The position numbers and the translations under genes were made by a program. Under the pieces are notes generated by a model that was not told the origin of the DNA, did not search any database, and was given only the letters and a program-made list of their open reading frames with translations. Below, piece after piece: positions 1 through 40,251 of a stretch of 40,320 nucleotides of DNA (positions within the stretch are counted from its first letter, which is position 1; each line of letters opens with the position of its first letter). Source of the stretch: a virus. Location: positions 1-40,320 of IMG/VR virus record IMGVR_UViG_3300037070_001537; one strand, 5' to 3'.

Positions 1-44
1 CGGCACGCTTCGAGGTGATTTTCGAGAAGTATGGAGCCGCTTGA
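1..44 (+). CDS. C-terminal fragment of a 31-aa small protein
   Basis: The window opens inside a short frame that ends with FEKYGAA and TGA at 42-44. The complete version is at 36244-36339 in the second cassette. The end of the frame overlaps the start of the next small ORF. Its function is unknown, and at this size even its being a gene is uncertain. Confidence 0.35.
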   Translation, partial: ARFEVIFEKYGAA

Positions 45-135
45 TTCTGCCAAGCATGCTCAATTTGTTCTTTGGGCGGTGTTCGTGCTCGTGGTCCTTG
101 TCGTGGTTCTTGCTCTCTTGATCATCCTCCGGTGA
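31..135 (+). CDS. Small single-TM protein, cassette copy 1
   Basis: A 34-aa frame starts at ATG 31 (MEPLDSAKHAQF...) and has one uninterrupted Leu/Val hydrophobic segment over about residues 13-33, ending in Arg. This is a typical single membrane span with a short acidic N-terminus. The second copy at 36326-36430 is almost identical at the nucleotide level, differing by one Ile/Leu change. No function is recognised. Its place just before the adhesin genes might suggest a holin-like or envelope-associated role, but nothing in the sequence proves that. Confidence 0.5.
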   Translation: MEPLDSAKHAQFVLWAVFVLVVLVVVLALLIILR

Positions 136-199
136 CGCAAGCCATTCAAACCATGCGCCACGCTCACACCAACAACTTCATAACGTACGGAGGCGCAAT

Positions 200-592
200 A
201 TGGCCGGCTCATTAACAAATTACGGTGAAGGAAAAGTACTAGGGCATCTGTTTGGCGGCACTACGTACGCGCCGGTTGCGACCTGGTATGTCGGCTTGTT
301 CAGTGTTGCGCCGACTGACAGCACAGCGGGAACGGAATTGACTGGCGGCGGCTATGCGCGCGGTGCCGTCACGAACAACACAACCAATTTTCCTGCTGCC
401 AATCCGACGGTGACTGGCGCAGACGTGACGCTCTTCACCTCGAGCGGATCACACACAGCGGTAGCAATGGGGCTCTTCGATGCTGTGACGGCGGGCAACC
501 TTGTGGCGTATTCAACGATTACCTCAACGCCAATCGTTGCGCTCGATGTGGTGCGCATAGTCGCGGGGCAGCTCTCAATCAGCCTGGATTAA
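200..592 (+). CDS. Phage tail fibre-like protein (Gp80-like), copy 1
   Basis: This 130-aa protein begins MAGSLTNYGEGKVLGHLFGG and contains the pattern YVGLFSVAPTDS...GGGYARGAVTNNTTNFPAA. That pattern is typical of a widespread family of small phage structural proteins annotated as tail fibre or Gp80-like, predicted to be beta-rich jelly-roll folds. A GGAGG-type ribosome site (cggaggcgc) precedes the ATG. The second copy (36498-36890) differs at only two residues despite many silent changes, so purifying selection is strong. It probably forms the virion-bound base of the receptor-binding complex. That role is inferred from family and position. Confidence 0.75.
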   Translation: MAGSLTNYGEGKVLGHLFGGTTYAPVATWYVGLFSVAPTDSTAGTELTGGGYARGAVTNNTTNFPAANPTVTGADVTLFTSSGSHTAVAMGLFDAVTAGNLVAYSTITSTPIVALDVVRIVAGQLSISLD

Positions 593-596
593 GTGA

Positions 597-932
597 GTGA
601 CACTTGGCGCATCAGCACTGGGGCAGGTTGCGCTTGGCGGCAGTGGCGTCGAAGCGGTAGTCAACTATGTCGATTGCGCAGCCTCAATCACGATCACCTC
701 AAGCATTGCCGCAAGCGTCATGGTTATTGGGCGAGTGGATGTATCCGCCCAGATTGTTATTGCGTCAAGCGTTCAAGCAGCACTAACGACCGTTCCACCA
801 GTGGCGGGCGAAGTGAATATCTCAGCATCAATCGCGATGGTTTCAGTACTCACAGCATCACTTATAGCGGCGGCAGGATTCCCGAATGCGGGAGTCTCAT
901 TCACGATGACCGATAAGGCAGGAGGCGCGTAA
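597..932 (+). CDS. Beta-repeat virion protein with LGAxALGQ N-terminus, copy 1
   Basis: This 111-aa protein starts at a GTG (597) four bases after the preceding stop. Its N-terminus MTLGASALGQVALGG matches the N-termini of the tailspikes at 2059 and 38359. Three internal units of about 20-28 residues follow the pattern V-x-x-S-A-x-I-x-I-x-S-S-V-x-A-x-L. The C-terminus (PNAGVSFTMTDKAGGA) resembles that of the small protein at 3722-3895. The stop overlaps the next start (TAATG). No named family is recognised. It is most likely a small structural or adaptor protein of the adhesin complex. Confidence 0.6.
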   Translation: MTLGASALGQVALGGSGVEAVVNYVDCAASITITSSIAASVMVIGRVDVSAQIVIASSVQAALTTVPPVAGEVNISASIAMVSVLTASLIAAAGFPNAGVSFTMTDKAGGA

Positions 933-2053
933 TGGCTCTCGATTTATTCAAGAATTTCGCAAAGGTTCAGGTTTCGACGGGCTACGATGCGTCGGCCACT
1001 TCCATTGCGCTGACTGCCGGTCACGGTACAAAGCTACCAGCGGCGCCATTCAATGCAACGTGGTGGAATGACACTGACTATCCCGACCCTAGCGATGATC
1101 CGAATGTTGAGATTGTGCGCGTGACTGCGATCGCTACCGATACGCTGACAGTGACACGCGGACAGGAAAGCATCACCGCAACAACGAAGAACACTGCGAG
1201 CAAAACCTATCGGATGATTGCGGGACTCACTGCGAAGTCACTGAACACTGACATCGCTTCCGCATTCGCTCAGGTAGGACATGGCAGGCTGACGCTTGCA
1301 ACAGGTGAGCCAGTCCTCGTTGCGGCGGATGTTGCGGGTGCAACTACGATCTACTTCACGCCATACAAAGGCAACATGATTAGTCTTTATGATGGCAGTT
1401 CGTGGGCTGCATATTCGTTCAATGAGTTGAGTCTCGCACTTGGTACGCTAACGACAAATACCAACTATGATGTGTTCATTTACAACAATGCGGGCACGCT
1501 CACGCTTGAACTTAGTGCCGCGTGGGTGTCGGGATCCACGCGCACCGATGCGATTACATTGCAAAATGGAATCTTTGTGAAATCAGGCGCGACCACGCGC
1601 CGTTATCTGGGTACGTTTCGCACAACCACCGCACTCACTACTGAAGATTCACAGACCAAGCGATTACTCTGGAACGTGGAAAACCAGATCGTCAGGAGAG
1701 CCTACAAGCAGGTATCGGGAAGTCATGTCTATACCGGTGGCTGGCGAATCTATAACGGTGATGCAACCGCCAAGATCGATGTGGTGGTTGGTGTGGTATC
1801 GGCGGGCAATATCGCATTTAGCGCGCAGTCACAGCCGACCACAGGGACGGCATATGTTGGCGTAGGCATAAACACGGTTGCCGGTCCAAGTGGTGACTTT
1901 GCTTTTGCTAATTCACAGGCCTCAACGATTGGCGGTCCGTTTGGCATGGGCTGGGCTCTCACTCTCGGATATTCAGAAATCAATTTAGTGCAGCAGGCAG
2001 GCGCTTCGACTACATTCGCTGGCGGTTCTTTGAGCGTCACGCTTCTAAATTAA
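932..2053 (+). CDS. Tail fibre protein, copy 1
   Basis: The protein is 373 aa. Residues 1-110 (MALDLFKNFAKVQVSTGYDA... DPNVEIVRVTA...TLTVTRGQE) match the conserved N-terminal region of a common phage tail fibre family and are well conserved in the 375-aa paralog at 37227-38354. A mid-protein segment, TRRYLGTFRTTT (around residues 225-236), is also shared. The remaining C-terminal part is largely unrelated between copies, the usual sign of an exchangeable receptor-binding tip on a conserved anchor. The first ~40 nt of the gene are almost identical between copies. Confidence 0.7.
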   Translation: MALDLFKNFAKVQVSTGYDASATSIALTAGHGTKLPAAPFNATWWNDTDYPDPSDDPNVEIVRVTAIATDTLTVTRGQESITATTKNTASKTYRMIAGLTAKSLNTDIASAFAQVGHGRLTLATGEPVLVAADVAGATTIYFTPYKGNMISLYDGSSWAAYSFNELSLALGTLTTNTNYDVFIYNNAGTLTLELSAAWVSGSTRTDAITLQNGIFVKSGATTRRYLGTFRTTTALTTEDSQTKRLLWNVENQIVRRAYKQVSGSHVYTGGWRIYNGDATAKIDVVVGVVSAGNIAFSAQSQPTTGTAYVGVGINTVAGPSGDFAFANSQASTIGGPFGMGWALTLGYSEINLVQQAGASTTFAGGSLSVTLLN

Positions 2054-3721: not shown

Positions 3722-3895
3722 ATGTTCAATGAGTTCGAGTTCAATGAAGGGTTATTCAACGATGCTGGCGGTGCTGGCGCATTCGTCCCGGGCATCGTGG
3801 ACACACCTGATCCCGGCGTCTCATTCACGATCAGCGACGAGCTCGGCGGATTTGAGGAAGCGATAAGCGATGAGTGCATGTGTATCAACGTATGA
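3722..3895 (+). CDS. Small cassette-end protein, copy 1
   Basis: A 57-aa frame starts at ATG 3722, two bases after the tailspike stop. It contains TPDPGVSFTISDELGG, which is nearly identical in its counterpart at 40077-40241 and similar to the C-terminus of the 111-aa protein at 597-932. Its 3' end overlaps the connector gene by 26 nt. The protein is acidic with no membrane segment. Function is unknown, but conservation in both copies argues that it is real and perhaps an assembly or docking peptide. Confidence 0.55.
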   Translation: MFNEFEFNEGLFNDAGGAGAFVPGIVDTPDPGVSFTISDELGGFEEAISDECMCINV

Positions 3896-7649: not shown

Positions 7650-10234
7650 TGGCAATCGTAATCAAAGTTAAAGCCGACACGAAAGAGCTTGAGAGGGACA
7701 TAACGCAAGCCGCGAAGAAGGCACAGGACACGCTCGGCAGCGGGAAAGGTGCAGCGCAAAGTTTCAACGCGGAGATTGCAAAAACGCGCCAGCATATTGA
7801 CGAGCTTGGCAAGCGAAGCGCGGCAGTTGGCAACGACATGACGGGCCTCGCGAAGGGTGCGGGCCTTGCCGGTGTAGCAATTGCCGTAGTGGCTACCGCA
7901 GCAGCCGCCGCGACAAAAGGAATAATCGACATGGGCATCGAAGGCGGCAAGCTCGCCAACCAGATGCTCGAGACTTCGAAAAGAACCGGGCAGACCGTCG
8001 AGCAGGTGCAAAAGCTCGAGAGCGGCTTTTCGAACCTCACGCCACGCCTTAAGGAAGTTGGCGCATTGCTTGACTACGCTACAGTTAAGAAGGCTGCCGA
8101 AGGCGCTCAACAATTCGAAATACTGAATAAGCAGATCGATGCAATGAAGGTGAAGGTGGGCGCACAGCTTAGTGGCGCTTTCGTCACCGCTGGCAGGGAA
8201 ATGCAGAACTTTGCCGCGATTACCGAGGTGACGCTATTGCGCGCGGCGGGCTCGCTTAATGGGCTGATTATTGCGATCACTCCGGCAATGCGTGGGCTTT
8301 TGCAAATCCTGGCACTGGCAATCGAAGCGCAACGCCGGTTCGGGAGCGGGCAGATGTTCGGGTTTGGCGGTGGCGCTCCGGCTGCTGCCGGCGGCTCGAC
8401 AATCGCTGTCGGCCACACGGGGCCACGATTCGGGCTTGGTACCGAGACGCGCGATTTCTTTCGTAGTGGTGTATTGACGAAGCCGATTACGACGGCAGCG
8501 GGAGCTGGCGCGGGCAGAGCTGGCGGCGGCGGTGTAGACCTCGCACGCGAGGAAGAGCGCATAGCGGCAGAACGGCTGCGAGTTCAGGAAGAGATCAATC
8601 GCGTCAAGCGACACACGCTCGAAACCGAGCTCGAGATGCTCGACGCGATCGGGAAGGAATTACTGAACGCATCCCGTGAGCAGGCTGCCGCGCAAGCGCG
8701 GACCGCTGCATTGCAGGGTCGCGTCAGGGCAGGCGATCAAGGGCCGATTGCGACGATCACGGCCGAACAGGCGGGAATCAGCGGCAGGCTCGACACTACC
8801 CGCGCTGACATCATCGATGCGCAATCGCAGATATTTCGCGAGGTCGAAGAGCAGGCGCGCAGATTCAAAGAAGGAATTGTATTCACATTCGAGTCAGCTT
8901 TCAGGGAGGGATTCGAGCGCGGTCCAAAAGCATTCCTGCAAGCGACAGCGCAAGCTATTAAGAGCTTCTTCTCGCAGATTGCGGCGGAGTTATCGACGGG
9001 GATTATTGAATTAATCCTATTTGGTAGGGGTGGAATATCGGGGCGCGGTGTTAGTTCTGGCGGTGCGCTAGGCGGACTGGGAGCCGTTCTGGGCGGCTTT
9101 GGTGGCGGTGGGGGCGGCGGAGGATTGGGCGGCCTTCTCGGCGGCTTTGGCGGGCTTGGTGGCGGTACGTTTGGCGGGTCGATATTTGGCGGCGGAGCAG
9201 GCGGTGCTGGTATCGGCGTTGCGCCTTCGATCAGTGGCGGTGGATTTGGCGGGGCATTCGGCAGCGTCGCAAATGCCGCCGCGCAGAAGCTCGGCGTATT
9301 TGGCGCTGGGACCGCAGGCGCGGGGGGGCTCTTTGGCGGGCTTGGCGGAATTGCAGGTATTGCAGGGCCGGCGCTCTTGGGAGGGCTTCTTGGTAGCGGC
9401 TTAGGCGGCACGTCGACTGGCGGAAAGATTCTAGGCGGTATTGGCGGCGCAATCGGTGGAATAGGTGCGGCAGCGGGTATTGCTGTGGGCCTTGCCGGAG
9501 GCGGCATTCTCGCCGGCGCTCTTGCTGCTACCGGCTTTGGCTTGCTCGCACTTCCTTTCCTCGTTGGCGCAATCCTGCTTGGCAAAGCTAAACAGCGTCG
9601 CACTGACGAGTCAGCAGCCGATGCGATATGGGTAGCCGAGCGCGATCAGCTCCGGCAAATTATCCAGGCAGTGAACGCCGATAGAATGGATGGTGCTTCC
9701 GCACTTTCACAAGCGCAGGCGTTACGCGCGCAAACCGTCTCGCAGTTATCGCAAATTAAAACTAAATCGGTGCGCGAATCGAGGCTCCAGAATCAGCTTC
9801 GCGACCTCGATAACGGTGTAGTTGCGGAATTGCGGGCAGCAGTCGAGCGCCAGGCGCGGCGGCGAGGCGTCAGCGGCGGGCTGGTGCCGGAGTTCGCAGG
9901 CGGTGGATATGTACAGGGCGTTGATCGTGGCTACGATTCCGTGCTTGCACGAGTGCGGCCTGGCGAAGTCATTCTCAACAAACAGCAGCAGTCAATGGTG
10001 CAATCACGCGCTGGCTATCGAATCTTCGAAGATGTCGGGATTCAGCAATTCCAGGCAGGCGGGCGCGTCAGTCCGGCACCTCCTGCCGCAGAATCACTAC
10101 ATATCAGGATTGCATTCGAAGGTGACGCACAGGCAATCGTGGGCAATCTTATCGTTCGCGGCGTTGAAACGTCGAGCGGCCAGCGCGCAATTGTGAGCGT
10201 CATCAAGAATGGCAGGAAGAATGGTGATCTATGA
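7649..10234 (+). CDS. Tail tape measure protein
   Basis: The protein is 861 aa, with its ATG overlapping the preceding stop (TAATG). It has an N-terminal coiled-coil region (VKADTKELERDITQAAKKA), hydrophobic segments near residues 68-95, and a long Gly-rich hydrophobic stretch (about residues 467-640). The C-terminal domain contains GLVPEFAGGGYVQG and RVRPGEVILNKQQQSMV, typical of tape measure proteins. It sets tail length and forms the DNA channel during ejection. The length would predict a tail in the usual siphovirus range. The Gly-rich stretch produces a long Pro-rich shadow frame on the other strand, which is not a gene. Confidence 0.88.
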   Translation: MAIVIKVKADTKELERDITQAAKKAQDTLGSGKGAAQSFNAEIAKTRQHIDELGKRSAAVGNDMTGLAKGAGLAGVAIAVVATAAAAATKGIIDMGIEGGKLANQMLETSKRTGQTVEQVQKLESGFSNLTPRLKEVGALLDYATVKKAAEGAQQFEILNKQIDAMKVKVGAQLSGAFVTAGREMQNFAAITEVTLLRAAGSLNGLIIAITPAMRGLLQILALAIEAQRRFGSGQMFGFGGGAPAAAGGSTIAVGHTGPRFGLGTETRDFFRSGVLTKPITTAAGAGAGRAGGGGVDLAREEERIAAERLRVQEEINRVKRHTLETELEMLDAIGKELLNASREQAAAQARTAALQGRVRAGDQGPIATITAEQAGISGRLDTTRADIIDAQSQIFREVEEQARRFKEGIVFTFESAFREGFERGPKAFLQATAQAIKSFFSQIAAELSTGIIELILFGRGGISGRGVSSGGALGGLGAVLGGFGGGGGGGGLGGLLGGFGGLGGGTFGGSIFGGGAGGAGIGVAPSISGGGFGGAFGSVANAAAQKLGVFGAGTAGAGGLFGGLGGIAGIAGPALLGGLLGSGLGGTSTGGKILGGIGGAIGGIGAAAGIAVGLAGGGILAGALAATGFGLLALPFLVGAILLGKAKQRRTDESAADAIWVAERDQLRQIIQAVNADRMDGASALSQAQALRAQTVSQLSQIKTKSVRESRLQNQLRDLDNGVVAELRAAVERQARRRGVSGGLVPEFAGGGYVQGVDRGYDSVLARVRPGEVILNKQQQSMVQSRAGYRIFEDVGIQQFQAGGRVSPAPPAAESLHIRIAFEGDAQAIVGNLIVRGVETSSGQRAIVSVIKNGRKNGDL

Positions 10235-23554: not shown

Positions 23555-23572
23555 GTTTCGGGGTGAGTTGTG

Positions 23573-25618
23573 ATGGGGCGAGTGTTTAATCGAGCACAGC
23601 GAGTTGCTTTGCTATGTCTGGCTGGCGGGCGTTGCAGGGAATGCGGAAAAGAAATCGAAGATGAGTTTCACGCAGACCACGTGATTCCGTGGTCAAAAGA
23701 AGGCGCGACCGATGTGATGAACGGTCGCGCAGTCTGTCCAACATGTAATCTAAAGAAAGGTAGCAAAATAATGGTAGCAGAGGCATTTCAAAAGATCCAG
23801 GTCGAACTTCGAAACTGGCAAGAGCGAGGGAAGAGGAGCGTTCTTGAATTATTTTCCAGAGATAAATCCACGGCTCTCGTTGCCGCAACAATGGCAGCTG
23901 GCAAGACATCATTGGGAGTTGCGATAGCGGCAGAACTTCTACAGGGAAATGTTCGTCGAGTGATAGTCGTCACAACGAGCAGGAATCTTCAAAAATCGTG
24001 GATTGAATGGGCAGATAGATTTGGCATTGACCTACTGCGGACGTTCGATCCGAAGAAAGGCATTCCATCTGATTGTCACGGTGTGGTTATCACGTATGCG
24101 CGGCTTTGTACTTACTATCAAGAGCAGATGACATCTTTTTCTGAATACTTGAAAGGCTACGCAACAGAGGCGCAAACGCTCGTCATTTTAGATGAACCTC
24201 ACCACCTATCGAAGAGCGATGAAGCTGGCTGGGGAGATAACGCGAAAAGAGCTTTTGAGTTTGCTCGATATCGCCTTCTCTTGACGGGGACTCCCTGGCG
24301 ATCAGATCGCACAGCTATTCCATTTGTCACATACGAAGACGTGGCGGGTATTGGTGAGGTCGTACATGCTGATTTTAATTACTCGTATACTGACGGCCTC
24401 GTAGACAAGATAGTACGAAGAGTCAATTTCCCTCTAATTGACAGTGCGACAAGTTTCAGTCGCAACAAGCGCGTATACAGTTCCGAAATGCTCGAACAGG
24501 TGCCCAAGTATCTCGAATCTGATGCTGTCAGGACTGCGTTGGATCCCGAGGTTTCTGAATGGCTGCCTACAGCAATGCGAGAAGCGCACGACGAATTATT
24601 GGAGATGCGTAAAACAGACCCACGCGCAGCAGGGTTGCTTGTTGTTTCGGACACAAAAGACATGGACAACATAGTTGCGATGGTGCGTACACAAACAGGA
24701 TGCGAGCCAGTCGTAGTCCACTCCAATTTGGAGAGAGTTGATTTGGAGAGAGTTGATACTGACAAGTTGATAGATAAGTTTCGTCTTTCAGATGCGCCCT
24801 GGATTATCGCAGTACAAATGATCTCTGAAGGTGTCGATATCCCACGATTGAGGGTGGGTGTGTATGGGACAAATATACGTACACGGCTAGCTTTTCGGCA
24901 GTTTGTTGGAAGATTCCTGCGAGTGATTGGTGATCGCTACTACGACTACGCATCGGTCTATGTCTTGCGCACTGGTCATATGATTGAGTACGTCAAAGAG
25001 TTCGAGTCGGAAGTTTACGAAGCCTTAAGGAAAGAAGCTGATGAGTGTATTTGCGCGTGCGGTTGTTACAACGGGCCGAAGTGCCGATGTGGCTGTCAGA
25101 AAGAAGAGGCTATCGCAGGCTGTAATTGTGGGAAGGGGGAAGGAGGAGATGATTCGGTATTTTTTGCTCTTTCAGGTTCAGGAGATAGGCGCGAAACAGT
25201 TCAATCAGGATTGTTCTATCCAGAATACGAGATGGAAGAGGCAAAAGAACTCAAGAAGAATGTGCCGCGCTATGCAGACTGGTCCTTAACTGATATTGCT
25301 GAAGTAAGCCGTATTCATCGCGGGTTAACTAATAATCAAGCGACAACTACAACACAGCCCAGACCTGCTCAGCAAACACAGACAAAGGAACGTCGCAGAG
25401 AAATACAAATAAATCGACTGGCGTTGAAAGTCAGGCAAGCCGTATTAATCAAAGTAAAGGCAATTGAAAGGGAAGAACCCGCATCGGGGCGAGATTACAG
25501 CCGCATACACAAGAGAGTCAATAAGATGGTGGGCGCTGATTCAAGCCATTCAATGACTGAAGAGCAATTGAAGCAAGCAACAACACTTGTTGTCGAACAC
25601 TTCGAGGACTTGTGGTAA
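23573..25618 (+). CDS. HNH nuclease-SF2 helicase fusion with Cys-rich cluster
   Basis: The protein is 681 aa. Residues 21-63 form an HNH zinc module (CRECG, FHADHVIPWS, N50, CPTCNLKKG). The helicase follows: Walker A MAAGKTS (107-113), a DEPH box (207-210), motif III LTGTPWRSD (237-245), and SEGVDIP plus RQFVGRFLR (motifs V/VI, about 419-447). A cluster of C-x-C pairs (CICACGCY, CRCGCQ, GCNCGKG) lies near 490-520. The C-terminal ~150 residues are charged and unrecognised. Together the parts suggest a DNA- or RNA-translocating nuclease. Base composition is lower in G+C than in neighbouring genes (a 60-nt sample at 24001-24060 is 29/60 GC, versus 37/60 at 21841-21900). It may be acquired cargo or defence. 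Confidence 0.8.
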   Translation: MGRVFNRAQRVALLCLAGGRCRECGKEIEDEFHADHVIPWSKEGATDVMNGRAVCPTCNLKKGSKIMVAEAFQKIQVELRNWQERGKRSVLELFSRDKSTALVAATMAAGKTSLGVAIAAELLQGNVRRVIVVTTSRNLQKSWIEWADRFGIDLLRTFDPKKGIPSDCHGVVITYARLCTYYQEQMTSFSEYLKGYATEAQTLVILDEPHHLSKSDEAGWGDNAKRAFEFARYRLLLTGTPWRSDRTAIPFVTYEDVAGIGEVVHADFNYSYTDGLVDKIVRRVNFPLIDSATSFSRNKRVYSSEMLEQVPKYLESDAVRTALDPEVSEWLPTAMREAHDELLEMRKTDPRAAGLLVVSDTKDMDNIVAMVRTQTGCEPVVVHSNLERVDLERVDTDKLIDKFRLSDAPWIIAVQMISEGVDIPRLRVGVYGTNIRTRLAFRQFVGRFLRVIGDRYYDYASVYVLRTGHMIEYVKEFESEVYEALRKEADECICACGCYNGPKCRCGCQKEEAIAGCNCGKGEGGDDSVFFALSGSGDRRETVQSGLFYPEYEMEEAKELKKNVPRYADWSLTDIAEVSRIHRGLTNNQATTTTQPRPAQQTQTKERRREIQINRLALKVRQAVLIKVKAIEREEPASGRDYSRIHKRVNKMVGADSSHSMTEEQLKQATTLVVEHFEDLW

Positions 25619-26229
25619 TGAAAGCGGCACTTGAAGAAAATCGCGATGTGTTGAATGGGCAGCTCGTAAGAGATGTTCAGCAGACTTTACGAGATGCCAA
25701 CTGGAATCTCGGTGATCTTCCGAAGTTCCTGAAGAACATTATCGAACTCGGTGCCTGGAAGCATCGCGTACTTCCAAATCCGCTTCCAGGTGAAGGCTAC
25801 ATAGAGTTCGAATCATTCACTGAGTTTGTCACCGAGCCGCTACTCAGAGGACTCGGCACTACAGTTAAGCATCTGCAGAACATTTGCAGGGACGACAAAG
25901 AAGCGTTACTACTTATTGATCAGGCAATACGGAACCCAAATGGACGGCCGCCTAAGAAAGAAACCTTGCACAATGTACAAGGTTCTTTGGCTCCCACTGG
26001 AAATACCCATTCAGCTGCCCTTCGTCGTTTGCACAAATCCCGCCCTGATCTACTTTCGAAGGTTTTGAAGGGTGAGCTTAGTAGTAATTCTGCAATGATC
26101 GAAGCGGGATTCAGGCAAAAGAGTCTCAATGTGCCTCTCGATCCTGAGAAGGCAGCAGCAGCCATCAAGCGCCATTTCAACGAAGAACAAATTGCCAAAC
26201 TTATCGCTCTGCTCCTGGGAGCCAATTAA
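25612..26229 (+). CDS. Partner protein of the HNH-helicase, unknown family
   Basis: This 205-aa protein overlaps the helicase stop. ATG 25618, overlapping the TAA, is the likely true start (the 25612 GTG adds two residues). The C-terminal half carries GNTHSAALRRLHKSRPDLL...VLKGELSSNSAMIEAGFR, a repeat-like helical motif seen in phage and plasmid replication or partition-associated proteins and reminiscent of DNA-binding adaptors. The N-terminal half (TLRDANWNLGDLPKFLKNII) is unrecognised. Tight coupling suggests it works with the helicase. Confidence 0.6.
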   Translation: MVMKAALEENRDVLNGQLVRDVQQTLRDANWNLGDLPKFLKNIIELGAWKHRVLPNPLPGEGYIEFESFTEFVTEPLLRGLGTTVKHLQNICRDDKEALLLIDQAIRNPNGRPPKKETLHNVQGSLAPTGNTHSAALRRLHKSRPDLLSKVLKGELSSNSAMIEAGFRQKSLNVPLDPEKAAAAIKRHFNEEQIAKLIALLLGAN

Positions 26230-26258
26230 TCACCCCTCACGCACCTTAATGAGATTTT

Positions 26259-26972
26259 GTGCCAGGAAAACAGCCGGCATTTTTGTTTTTCACGGGCGAC
26301 TGGATGAAAGATCCCAACCTCTCTAAATGCTCTGCCGCAACACGCGGAATATGGATGGATCTTCTATGCGCCATGCACGAGAACGGACGCACCGGAATCA
26401 TCACCGGAACGATCAAGGAGCTCGCCCAAATGTGTCGATGTTCTGAGCAGGAGATGCGTTACACCATCGTTACATTGCAAAGTAACGAGGTCGCGGAAAT
26501 CCGAAAGCGTAACGCTCCGTCACATAAAGTTACGGTGGTAAATCGAAGGATGAATCGCGAGCATAAAGTGCGTGAAGCCACGAAGTTACGGGCACAGAAG
26601 CATCGCGCAAAATCGCACCGTAACGCAGGTGGTAACGCCGATGTAACATCTAGTTCTTCATGTTCAGAAGAACTAGTACTAGTAAGTAGAGAAATAAGTA
26701 GTAGTAGTAGTGTTAGTTCTTCACCCTCGACTGACAAACTTTTTTCAGAAGAATTCTTAAATCAAATCCAGGCCGATCCGGTGTCTGCGGGACTCGACGT
26801 CCGGCAGGTTCTCAAGAAGTTCAAGGGCTGGGTTTCCGAGCACGGCGGTGATGGCGATGAGCGACACTTCATTCGATGGCTCAAACGAGAAAGGCGAGAC
26901 AATGGCAGCGACGACAGGGGAAGCGCCGAGCAGATCGCGCGCGTTGCCCGAAATCTTAGCGGGAATAATTAG
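26259..26972 (+). CDS. Replication initiator / replisome organizer
   Basis: This 237-aa protein starts at GTG 26259. Residues 8-80 (FLFFTGDWMKDPNLSKCSAATRG..., IKELAQMCRCSEQEMRYTI) match the winged-helix N-terminal domain of phage replisome organizers. A basic linker and then a Ser-rich, low-complexity linker (about residues 130-155) follow, and a C-terminal helical region (VRQVLKKFKGWVSE...FIRWLKRER) that may recruit host helicase. The gene encloses the repeat cluster at 26458-26676, so, as with lambda O, the initiator probably binds an origin inside its own gene. Confidence 0.7.
   Translation: MPGKQPAFLFFTGDWMKDPNLSKCSAATRGIWMDLLCAMHENGRTGIITGTIKELAQMCRCSEQEMRYTIVTLQSNEVAEIRKRNAPSHKVTVVNRRMNREHKVREATKLRAQKHRAKSHRNAGGNADVTSSSSCSEELVLVSREISSSSSVSSSPSTDKLFSEEFLNQIQADPVSAGLDVRQVLKKFKGWVSEHGGDGDERHFIRWLKRERRDNGSDDRGSAEQIARVARNLSGNN
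26458..26676. repeat. Probable origin: nine GTTAC/GTAAC iterons plus hairpin
   Basis: Nine GTTAC or GTAAC pentamers start at 26458, 26469, 26482, 26509, 26529, 26585, 26620, 26632 and 26643. Six extend to CGTTAC in the same relative orientation. They fall in different codon phases, so they are not explained by repeated amino acids. They are followed by a perfect 10-bp inverted repeat (CTAGTTCTTC at 26650-26659, GAAGAACTAG at 26667-26676, loop of 7), an AGT-repeat tract and an AT-rich stretch to about 26770. This is the layout of an iteron origin embedded in an initiator gene. Confidence 0.65.
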
Positions 26973-27411
26973 CGCAGCCCGGCGCCGGGCTGGTGTCGCA
27001 GCTCTAAGCGACGCGGCACTCGCTGAAGAGATTCGCGACTGGCAGCGGATACTTGCACCGATACCAGCGGATCGCCTGGAAGAATGCGAGCTACGAGCGG
27101 TTCGAACTCGAAGCGTCAAGGCGCTTTTGCAGCCGCAGGAACTTCTCGCAGCGTGGGCAGAGATTCGTGAAGCAGATCGCGCGAAGCGGCCACCGAGCGT
27201 CGAAGCGCGATCAGAAGCGGATCAATGCGCTTTCTGTGGCGGGTTTGGCTGGCAGACATTCGCGTATCGTGGCGAAGCAGGGAACGAAAACACGGCGGCG
27301 CGTCCTTGCGCGTGCAAGGCTACGCCAATGGAGATTCGATCACTCGAGCCATTGCGCGAACCGGAGTGGCAAAGGCGCAAGCATTCGGCGATATGGGAGC
27401 GCGTGACGTGA
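26902..27411 (+). CDS. Zinc-ribbon protein downstream of the replication initiator
   Basis: This 169-aa protein has its start placed at ATG 26902 because AAGGCGAG precedes it (an upstream ATG at 26848 is also open). It overlaps the initiator by about 70 nt. After a helical region (IRDWQRILAPIPADRLEECEL) comes CAFCGGFGWQTF with a later CACK, a DnaJ-like four-cysteine zinc module. No P-loop is seen, so it is not a typical helicase loader. A replication accessory role is inferred from position. Confidence 0.55.
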   Translation: MAATTGEAPSRSRALPEILAGIISAARRRAGVAALSDAALAEEIRDWQRILAPIPADRLEECELRAVRTRSVKALLQPQELLAAWAEIREADRAKRPPSVEARSEADQCAFCGGFGWQTFAYRGEAGNENTAARPCACKATPMEIRSLEPLREPEWQRRKHSAIWERVT

Positions 27412-36243: not shown

Positions 36244-36339
36244 ATGAGTTTCCACACTCCTTCTCCTGGTAAACCTCGAAGCGGGCGGTTTGCCCCAGCA
36301 CGCTTCGAGGTGATTTTCGAGAAGTATGGAGCCGCTTGA
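36244..36339 (+). CDS. 31-aa basic small protein
   Basis: This frame encodes MSFHTPSPGKPRSGRFAPA followed by RFEVIFEKYGAA. It overlaps the next small ORF and is repeated at the window start (copy 1 fragment). It is probably real because it is conserved in both copies, but its size leaves doubt. Confidence 0.4.
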   Translation: MSFHTPSPGKPRSGRFAPARFEVIFEKYGAA

Positions 36340-36430
36340 TTCTGCCAAGCATGCTCAATTTGTTCTTTGGGCGGTGTTCGTGCTCGTGGTCCTTGTCGTG
36401 GTTCTTGCTCTCTTGATCCTCCTCCGGTGA
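36326..36430 (+). CDS. Small single-TM protein, cassette copy 2
   Basis: This 34-aa frame has one Leu/Val-rich membrane segment and is almost identical to the copy at 31-135. The near-identity at nucleotide level contrasts with the heavily silent-substituted 130-aa gene that follows. Function is unknown. Confidence 0.5.
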   Translation: MEPLDSAKHAQFVLWAVFVLVVLVVVLALLILLR

Positions 36431-36497
36431 CGCAAGTCATTCAAACCATGCGCCACACTCACAACACCAAAAACTTCATAACGTACGGAGGCGCAAT

Positions 36498-36890
36498 ATG
36501 GCGGGGTCGTTAACAAATTATGGTGAAGGCAAAGTGCTCGGTCACTTGTTTGGCGGCACGACGTATGCGCCGGTTGCAACCTGGTACGTTGGTCTATTCA
36601 GCGTTGCGCCAACGGATTCAACTGCTGGAACTGAGTTGACAGGCGGTGGGTATGCTCGAGGTGCAGTCACTAACAACACAACCAACTTTCCTGCTGCCAA
36701 TCCGACGGTGACTGGCGCAGATGTGACGCTCTTTACCTCGAGCGGGTCGCACACGGCAGTAGCAATGGGGCTCTTCGATGCAGTGACGGGCGGGAATCTG
36801 GTTGCGTATTCGACGATGACCTCAACGCCAATCGTCGCGCTCGATGTGGTGCGCATTGTCGCGGGTCAGCTCAGCATCAGTTTGGATTAA
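36498..36890 (+). CDS. Phage tail fibre-like protein (Gp80-like), copy 2
   Basis: This 130-aa protein differs from copy 1 by two residues (A to G in VTGGNLVAY, I to M in STMTSTP). It is preceded by CGGAGGCGC. It probably forms the conserved base of the adhesin complex. Confidence 0.75.
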   Translation: MAGSLTNYGEGKVLGHLFGGTTYAPVATWYVGLFSVAPTDSTAGTELTGGGYARGAVTNNTTNFPAANPTVTGADVTLFTSSGSHTAVAMGLFDAVTGGNLVAYSTMTSTPIVALDVVRIVAGQLSISLD

Positions 36891-36894
36891 GTGA

Positions 36895-37227
36895 GTGATA
36901 CTTGGCGCATCAGCACTGGGGCAGTTGGCGCTCGGCGGCGCATCGGCGGCAGTTACGACTTACGTCGATGTGTCTGCATCGATAGCGATCACTTCAAGCG
37001 TGAACGCTGCGCTTATGATTGCGGGGCAGATTCACGTTGCCGCCGATATTGTCATTACGTCGAGCGTACAAGCATCCCTCACGATCAATGAGCCAGTCTA
37101 CGGTCACGTTCAGATTTCAGCATCAATCGCTATGGTATCAGCACTCACAGCATCGCTTATAGCGGCGGCGGGATTCCCGAATGCGGGAGTCTCATTCACG
37201 ATGACAGATAAAGCAGGAGGCGCGTAA
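36895..37227 (+). CDS. Beta-repeat virion protein with LGAxALGQ N-terminus, copy 2
   Basis: This 110-aa protein starts at GTG 36895 with MILGASALGQLALGGAS. It has the same three V-x-x-SA-x-I-x-I-x-SSV repeats, with conserved ISASIAMVSALTASL near the end and PNAGVSFTMTDKAGGA at the C-terminus. The middle differs from copy 1. The stop overlaps the fibre start (TAATG). Confidence 0.6.
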   Translation: MILGASALGQLALGGASAAVTTYVDVSASIAITSSVNAALMIAGQIHVAADIVITSSVQASLTINEPVYGHVQISASIAMVSALTASLIAAAGFPNAGVSFTMTDKAGGA

Positions 37228-38354
37228 TGGCTCTCGATCTATTCAAGAATTTCGCAAAGGTTCAAGTATCGACTGGCTATGACGCCTCGGCCACGTCCGT
37301 CGTGCTTGCGGGCGGTCACGGCGCAAAGCTGCCGACGGCTCCGTTCAACGCAACATGGTGGGATTCGTCCATCGCTGATCCTACCGACGATCCTAACGTC
37401 GAGATAGTGCGCGTCACTGCGGTTGCAGCGGATACGCTCACTGTGACTCGTGGTCAGGAAGGGACGTCAGCAACTCCGAAGAACACCGCCGGCCAAACCT
37501 ACAAGATGATTGCGGGGCTGACTGCCAAGACTTTCAATACTGATTTGTCGATGGTACCGCAGGTTTTAAACGGCAGACTGACGCTTGAATCAGGCGTGCC
37601 GGGTTCAATCACTGACCAGACTGCTAAAACCACAATTTACTACACTCCGTTTCAGGGTAATTGCATCAGTGTTTACGCCGGTTCGATGTGGGTGTGTCGT
37701 CAGTTTGCAGAGATTGCGCTACCGCTTGGGACGCTTGTCGCTGGCAAGAATTACGACGTGTTTGCGTATGATAGCGCGGGTGCAATTGCGCTTGAACTCG
37801 GCGCAGCGTGGACAAGTGATACGGTGCGAGCCGAGGCGCTCGTGTTGCAGGATGGCGTTCATGTGAAGTCGGGAGCATTAACGCGCCGCTATCTCGGAAC
37901 CTTTCGCACAACAACGACCACAACTACGGAGGATTCGCTACTCCGGCGCTTCGTATGGAGCAGGGCAACGACGCTGGGCCGTGATCTGTTTTTCTCCGAC
38001 ACAACACCGCATACCTATGATGGCCTAGTGCGAATGTGGGCAGCGAACGCCGAGGCTCGCGTGCAATTTGTTAGTGGGCTGGCTGAGGAACTGGTAACAA
38101 TCAATGTGTCTGCTGAATTGATTTCTGGTGCCGGCATTTTTGTTATCGGGGCCGTTGGCCTTGATTCGCTGTCAGCTTATCGAACGCTTGAAGCCTACGC
38201 GCAGCAAAGCGGCGGCTCGCTGACTACAAAAATCTCCGCAACTGAAGCTATGAGTCCGCAGATTGGGTATCACGCGCTGAATCTGACGCAACGAACGTTT
38301 AGCGGTTCGGGTAATTTTAACGCAGGTGGGATCAGCGCGGTTTTCCGGTGCTAA
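37227..38354 (+). CDS. Tail fibre protein, copy 2
   Basis: This 375-aa protein has its N-terminal 110 residues (VQVSTGYDASATS..., DPNVEIVRVTA...DTLTVTRGQEG) conserved with copy 1. The C-terminal half is diverged, apart from ALTRRYLGTFRTTT. It is a likely receptor-binding fibre. Confidence 0.7.
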   Translation: MALDLFKNFAKVQVSTGYDASATSVVLAGGHGAKLPTAPFNATWWDSSIADPTDDPNVEIVRVTAVAADTLTVTRGQEGTSATPKNTAGQTYKMIAGLTAKTFNTDLSMVPQVLNGRLTLESGVPGSITDQTAKTTIYYTPFQGNCISVYAGSMWVCRQFAEIALPLGTLVAGKNYDVFAYDSAGAIALELGAAWTSDTVRAEALVLQDGVHVKSGALTRRYLGTFRTTTTTTTEDSLLRRFVWSRATTLGRDLFFSDTTPHTYDGLVRMWAANAEARVQFVSGLAEELVTINVSAELISGAGIFVIGAVGLDSLSAYRTLEAYAQQSGGSLTTKISATEAMSPQIGYHALNLTQRTFSGSGNFNAGGISAVFRC

Positions 38355-40076: not shown

Positions 40077-40241
40077 GTGTGGAATTCGAGCGTTTGGAAT
40101 GATGAATTGTGGAATGACGCAGGTGGTGTGCCATTCATTCCCGGTGAGATCGTGGCAACACCTGATCCCGGCGTCTCATTCACCATCAGTGATGAACTTG
40201 GCGGATTTGAGGAAGCGATAAGCGATGAGTGCATGTGTTAA
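40077..40241 (+). CDS. Small cassette-end protein, copy 2
   Basis: This 54-aa frame starts at GTG 40077, six bases after the tailspike stop. It has an N-terminal WNSSVWNDELWNDAGG segment and TPDPGVSFTISDELGG near the C-terminal side, matching the 57-aa protein at 3722-3895 in the latter part only. Function is unknown. Confidence 0.55.
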   Translation: MWNSSVWNDELWNDAGGVPFIPGEIVATPDPGVSFTISDELGGFEEAISDECMC

Positions 40242-40251
40242 CACGTATGAT

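What the first reader, a model, noticed from the sequence alone, without database searches (positions are those of the whole stretch)
26458..26676. Embedded replication origin: nine GTTAC repeats plus 10-bp hairpin in the initiator gene
Nine copies of a 5-bp motif (or its complement) in 190 bp would be expected about 0.4 times at random, and they lie in different reading phases. A perfect 10-bp inverted repeat and an AT/AGT-rich stretch follow. The arrangement mirrors lambda ori inside O, but with different iterons.
Basis: partly seen in the sequence, partly recalled or inferred. Interest (0 to 1): 0.8.

Follow-up and report, generated by a model that had tools for sequence, protein, structure and literature searches.

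The report
Phage replication origin inside initiator gene
An uncultured phage most likely carries its DNA replication start site inside the gene for the protein that recognises it, an arrangement known from phage lambda and some plasmids; in related phages the recognition domain and its landing sites have been swapped together.

Summary
Nine GTTAC/GTAAC copies lie at 26458-26647 in all three reading phases. None of 2000 synonymous-codon shuffles reaches nine, and this gene is the strongest outlier of 30 tested. A perfect 10-bp inverted repeat follows (26650-26659/26667-26676), and 26668-26767 is the least stable 100 bp of the 40,320-bp virus record.

The gene (26259-26972) encodes a predicted winged helix, a disordered linker and a helical C-terminal domain. 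Its best solved-structure matches are plasmid Rep initiator domains. Relatives sit beside helicase or helicase-loader genes.

Kin phages carry other repeats at the same place (GTTAC, GTCAC, TCCGC, ACGGTGC, ATCTA). Where the DNA-binding domain is unrelated, domain, repeats and tract differ as one block between conserved flanks. A distant family has AGCAAA repeats every 11/12 bp, out of codon phase.

The embedded-origin reading is well supported by comparison; binding and replication are untested. The kind is known (lambda O, SPP1 gene 38, pSK41 rep). The hairpin is not generally conserved, and GC skew gives no signal. Verdict: new member of a known kind, moderate interest.

The parts
26230..26258 (+). 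Leader just upstream of the initiator gene, conserved between kin with either type of DNA-binding domain
   Evidence: 75-88% DNA identity up to about position -60 between type-A and type-B kin
26259..26972 (+). Initiator gene (237 aa, GTG start): winged helix, linker, helical C-terminal domain
   Evidence: PHROG 186 DnaD-like helicase loader E 4.9e-6; AlphaFold2 model; plasmid Rep N-terminal domains as top PDB matches
26458..26486 (.). Iterons 1-3: GTTAC at 26458(+), 26469(+), GTAAC at 26482(-); steps 11 and 13 bp
26509..26589 (.). Iterons 4-6: 26509(-), 26529(+), 26585(+)
26620..26647 (.). Iterons 7-9: 26620(-), 26632(-), 26643(-); steps 12 and 11 bp
26650..26676 (.). 10-bp perfect inverted repeat CTAGTTCTTC / GAAGAACTAG with 7-nt loop; 9 bp of it kept in kin L029, absent as such in L074, L079, L083
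26668..26767 (.). Putative DNA unwinding element: least stable 100 bp of the record, purine-rich on the + strand; encodes most of the disordered linker
   Evidence: same place least stable in all five type-A kin; linker disorder
26902..27411 (+). Overlapping downstream gene of unknown function, conserved next to the initiator in kin; used to find them

Best explanation
It is a phage replication origin (probably theta-type) embedded in its own initiator gene. The N-terminal winged helix of the protein binds the CGTTAC iterons that lie in its coding sequence (codons 67-130). Several bound copies strain the adjacent low-stability tract (26668-26767), which melts. The C-terminal helical domain then recruits the host replicative helicase or primase, since no DnaB- or DnaC-like gene was identified in this record. 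Shown by computation: the repeats, their excess over codon constraint, the low-stability tract, the domain architecture, and replacement of the repeats together with the DNA-binding domain in kin. Inferred: binding, melting, recruitment, and origin function itself.
For: Nine iterons beyond codon constraint; least stable DNA of the record directly beside them, at the same place in all five type-A kin; initiator-type profile matches and winged-helix model resembling plasmid Rep domains; other repeats at the same place in kin, with domain, repeats and tract exchanged as a block between conserved flanks; AGCAAA repeats at 11/12-bp spacing in a distant family, which no codon constraint explains; homologues beside DnaB-type helicase, DnaC-like or lambda-P-like genes.
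Against: No binding or replication data. Repeat excess is weak in kin L074 and L079 when the protein is held fixed (156/1000 and, for GTYAC, 62/1000). GC skew shows no turning point. The hairpin is not conserved. Pam1 and Versailles homologues have no significant repeats. Structure matches have modest E-values and MarR regulators score nearly as well.
Confidence: 0.88

Rival explanations
1. The repeats are operator sites by which the initiator (or the upstream gene product, 25612-26229) regulates transcription of the operon, and replication starts elsewhere.
For: Repeats on both strands and in a DNA-binding protein's own gene would suit autoregulation; initiators often autoregulate (general knowledge).
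Against: The repeats lie 200-390 bp inside the gene, no sigma-70-like promoter was found in 25600-27100 (weak evidence because promoter type is unknown), and the least stable DNA of the record adjoins them. The upstream gene is replaced by others in several kin.
Confidence: 0.06
2. The repeats belong to packaging or partition (pac/cos-like or parS-like), not to replication initiation.
For: Clustered short repeats are also used by terminases and ParB proteins (general knowledge); terminase genes lie 3 kb downstream.
Against: Repeats change along with the initiator's DNA-binding domain while the large terminase stays 84% identical in L028 and L029. No ParA/ParB family was hit among the genes scanned.
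Confidence: 0.02
3. Chance or protein-coding constraint: the cluster reflects Val-Thr, Arg-Asn and similar dipeptides and carries no function.
For: Some sites fall at the same encoded residues in kin (TKLR, GNADV in L083), and in L074 the count is near what its protein allows.
Against: In the window no synonymous shuffle reaches the count (0 of 2000) and the sites lie in three reading phases. Independent repeats recur in kin and, out of codon phase, in a distant family.
Confidence: 0.04

Closest known systems
Phage lambda O gene and ori-lambda (Stx phages with six iterons)
   Same: Iterons and an AT-rich tract in the middle of the initiator gene, in that order (PMC7466680)
   Different: The window protein matches DnaD-like, not O-like, profiles; nine short 5-6-bp sites on both strands instead of four longer iterons; no P-like loader gene identified here
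RepA_N plasmid initiators (pSK41 rep; chimera pPR9)
   Same: Winged-helix N-terminal domain binding Rep boxes located centrally in the rep gene; linker encoded by the origin; pPR9 exchanged N-terminal domain plus origin as a block while keeping the C-terminal domain (PMC5703833); top fold matches are Rep/initiator N-terminal domains
   Different: No RepA_N Pfam match; a phage; repeat sequence unrelated
SPP1 gene 38 / oriL
   Same: Direct repeats bound by gp38 lie within gene 38, with an AT-rich unwinding element (PMC6316719)
   Different: SPP1 has its own helicase loader and helicase and a second origin (oriR); none was found here
RepA-like initiators of extrachromosomal mycobacterial prophages
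   Same: repA segments replicate autonomously and the origin is inferred to lie in or beside repA (PMC7157519); phage records annotated with RepA-like initiators match the type-B domain of kin
   Different: The window's own type-A domain is another sequence family; those authors recognised no repeats

Membership tests
Origin embedded in the initiator gene (lambda / SPP1 / pSK41 kind) | Repeated sites clustered inside the initiator coding sequence beyond codon constraint | tested here: met
Origin embedded in the initiator gene (lambda / SPP1 / pSK41 kind) | Easily melted tract adjoining the repeats | tested here: met
   Rank 1 of the record for 100-bp windows; same place in type-A kin
Origin embedded in the initiator gene (lambda / SPP1 / pSK41 kind) | Host gene encodes a sequence-specific DNA-binding initiator | tested here: inconclusive
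   Predicted winged helix and initiator-type profiles; binding not shown
Origin embedded in the initiator gene (lambda / SPP1 / pSK41 kind) | Sites bound by the encoded protein and required for replication | not testable with these tools
   Needs EMSA, footprinting and replication assays
Lambda O protein family | Sequence match to O-like initiator profiles | tested here: not met
   No O-like profile for the window protein up to E 1
RepA_N plasmid initiators | RepA_N domain (PF06970) | tested here: not met
   No match up to E 1; only fold-level resemblance of the N-terminal domain
DnaD-like helicase loaders of phages (PHROG 186) | Profile match | tested here: met
   E 4.9e-6, residues 17-171; L029, L074 and L083 also match
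DnaD-like helicase loaders of phages (PHROG 186) | Helicase-loading activity of the C-terminal domain | not testable with these tools
   Inference only; no Pfam match for this part

The most novel reading that the evidence does not exclude
In a broad, little-recognised class of phage initiators (DUF1376-, DnaD- and RepA-like), the low-complexity linker (poly-Ser, SVSVSDS, GREGKG, PDSLIPDSL) is largely the translation of the origin's repeats and melting tract, selected as DNA. DNA-binding domain, iterons and tract travel as one exchangeable cassette between a conserved leader and a conserved C-terminal domain.
Probability: 0.4. Interest if true: 0.6.

Novelty: new member of a known kind. Interest (0 to 1): 0.42.

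Why it matters
It gives a precise, testable origin for an uncultured phage lineage. The kin set shows natural exchanges of DNA-binding domain together with iterons, which could be used to learn how initiator specificity is encoded. It also suggests a simple rule for finding origins in uncultured phages: look in the disordered linker of the initiator gene for repeats that break codon phase beside the least stable DNA.

Tried and rejected
GC skew as origin locator: no inflection. Hairpin as a terminator: no T-run, and the scan does not report it. Hairpin as conserved core: shared only with L029. Sequence search of solved structures: nothing relevant. Bacterial genomes: two remote relatives only, so the host is unknown. 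The upstream gene 25612-26229 found no relatives by its own search, although L079 has a partly similar gene there (by eye). Phage isolates: only Pseudanabaena phage Pam1 matched the window protein, at 28% identity; its repeats are few and not significant, but the least stable DNA lies at the same place. Pfam gave no clear domain for the C-terminal part.

Full report
Observation. The window is a whole IMG/VR virus record of 40,320 bp. It encodes an integrase, a Gp157-type protein, terminase and virion genes, so it is a temperate-type tailed phage or a large part of one. GTTAC or its complement occurs nine times at 26458-26647, on both strands and in all three reading phases. Against synonymous-codon shuffles of the gene the expectation is 2.7 and the maximum 7 in 2000 trials; no 5-mer of any kind reaches nine. 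Of 30 genes tested the same way this gene is the strongest outlier, z 6.9 against 3.3 for the next. The perfect 10-bp inverted repeat is at 26650-26659/26667-26676. The 100 bp at 26668-26767 are the least stable of the record by nearest-neighbour energy.

The protein. Gene 26259-26972 matches PHROG 186, DnaD-like helicase loader (E 4.9e-6), and weakly DUF1376. An AlphaFold2 model from 13 sequences shows a winged helix (helix 26-41, strand 47-51, helices 52-58 and 63-75, strands 80-83 and 90-94), a long helix 96-122, a low-confidence linker 130-157 and a C-terminal helical domain. The best PDB matches are 4pql, 4pt7 and 5kbj, described as the N-terminal domain of a DNA-binding protein, an initiator and a Rep-DNA complex. 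E-values of 4e-3 to 1.5e-2 make this suggestive only, and MarR regulators follow closely. The iterons begin at codon 67, inside the predicted recognition helix (63-75), and the low-stability tract encodes most of the linker.

Close kin. A terminase search and a search with the overlapping downstream gene gave phages with the same neighbourhood. Five initiators have the window's DNA-binding domain (type A: window, L029, L074, L079, L083; the four kin are 43-54% identical to the window). Four have an unrelated N-terminal domain (type B: L028, L076, L077, L078); the two scanned match replication-initiation PHROGs with E down to 2e-45. The repeats differ: GTTAC in the window, L083 and L074; GTCAC-like in L079; TCCGC in L029; ACGGTGC in L028, L077 and L078; ATCTA in L076. 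With the protein held fixed, the excess is strong for the window (0/1000), L083 (2/1000), L029 (5/1000) and L076 (0/1000), and weak for L074 and L079. The motifs for kin were chosen after inspecting their sequences, so those figures overstate significance somewhat; the tests over any k-mer are the stricter ones. By that test L029 is not exceptional for 5-mers and its best 7-mer belongs to the GAAGAAC tract, and L079 is not exceptional at all. In every type-A member the least stable 100 bp of its locus or record lies in the same part of the gene.

Exchange of a cassette. L078 (B) and L079 (A) are 86% identical in the leader just before the start codon and 84% identical from gene position about 614 onward, with no detected similarity in between; other A/B pairs behave alike. 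DNA-binding domain, repeats and purine tract thus differ together. Among type-A pairs the DNA similarity (about 68-83% identity) stops at gene position about 156-209, which is where the repeats begin. This fits iterons that change with their reader.

Distant family. Twenty-five IMG/VR loci with a related N-terminus (for example 52% identity over residues 4-49) carry AGCAAA: three or four inverted copies at gene positions 65, 76, 87 and 99 (one more at 104 in some), and about five to ten direct copies between 313 and 428, at steps of 11 or 12 bp, hence helically phased and out of codon phase. A sub-family has drifted GAACAAA-like repeats (by eye). The loci are related to one another, so they are not independent observations.

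Neighbourhood of homologues. In L054 the next gene is a DnaB helicase (E 1.5e-51). In Pseudanabaena phage Pam1 the homologue follows the replicative helicase gene. In isolates with type-B-like initiators the gene precedes a DnaB helicase (JBD44; Bordetella IFTN4 a little further on) or a lambda-P-like gene (Vibrio 66E30.1); in Bacteroides phage Versailles a replisome organizer precedes a DnaC-like loader. Several of the isolates have CTGATTC repeats encoding PDSLIPDSL in the linker, well above synonymous shuffles in Aurca01 and 66E30.1, borderline in JBD44 and F10, and no repeats in Versailles.

Mechanism. The best-supported reading is an embedded origin: the winged helix binds the iterons, the neighbouring tract melts, and the C-terminal domain recruits host helicase or primase. 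The anatomy and the comparative pattern are shown; binding, melting, recruitment and origin activity are inferred. GC skew neither helps nor hurts.

Known kind. Lambda has its iterons and AT-rich tract in the middle of O (PMC7466680). SPP1 oriL lies in gene 38 (PMC6316719). In pSK41 the Rep boxes lie centrally in rep and the linker is encoded by the origin; in pPR9 N-terminal domain plus origin were exchanged as a block (PMC5703833). The window is a new member of this kind but not of the lambda O or RepA_N sequence families, whose profiles it does not match. The less familiar part is the suggested generality of origin-derived linkers, which was sampled here and not tested systematically.

Noticed in passing
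window 3-1237 and 36298-37529; 3770-3895 and 40122-40250: Two diverged copies (83-86% DNA identity where alignable) of a tail-gene module stand near the two ends of the record; kin L029 seems to have one copy. It could be a real duplication or two variants joined in assembly.
   Followed up: partly
L004-L023, L035-L040; gene positions 65-104 and 313-428: A distant initiator family carries two AGCAAA arrays of opposite orientation with 11/12-bp spacing, the first within codons 22-35, regardless of codon phase.
   Followed up: partly
L076:4719-4760 and the matching parts of L028, L077, L078: In type-B kin the repeats adjoin a G-rich purine tract (GGGAAGGGAAGGGATAGGG...), a possible G-quadruplex-forming sequence in place of an AT-rich tract.
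   Followed up: no
L091:2501-3304, L093:2501-3370: CTGATTC repeats encoding PDSLIPDSL in the linker of initiator-like proteins of cultured Pseudomonas and Vibrio phages exceed synonymous shuffles.
   Followed up: partly
window 23570-25618: An HNH nuclease domain fused to a ResIII-type helicase; kin have other helicase genes there, L079 a ResIII type without the HNH match.
   Followed up: no
window 25612-26229: Gene of unknown function directly upstream of the initiator; L079 has a partly similar one (shared HFNEEQI motif), other kin have unrelated genes.
   Followed up: no
window 9059-9250: Dense CCGCC cluster in the tape-measure gene, explained mostly by glycine-rich coding.
   Followed up: yes
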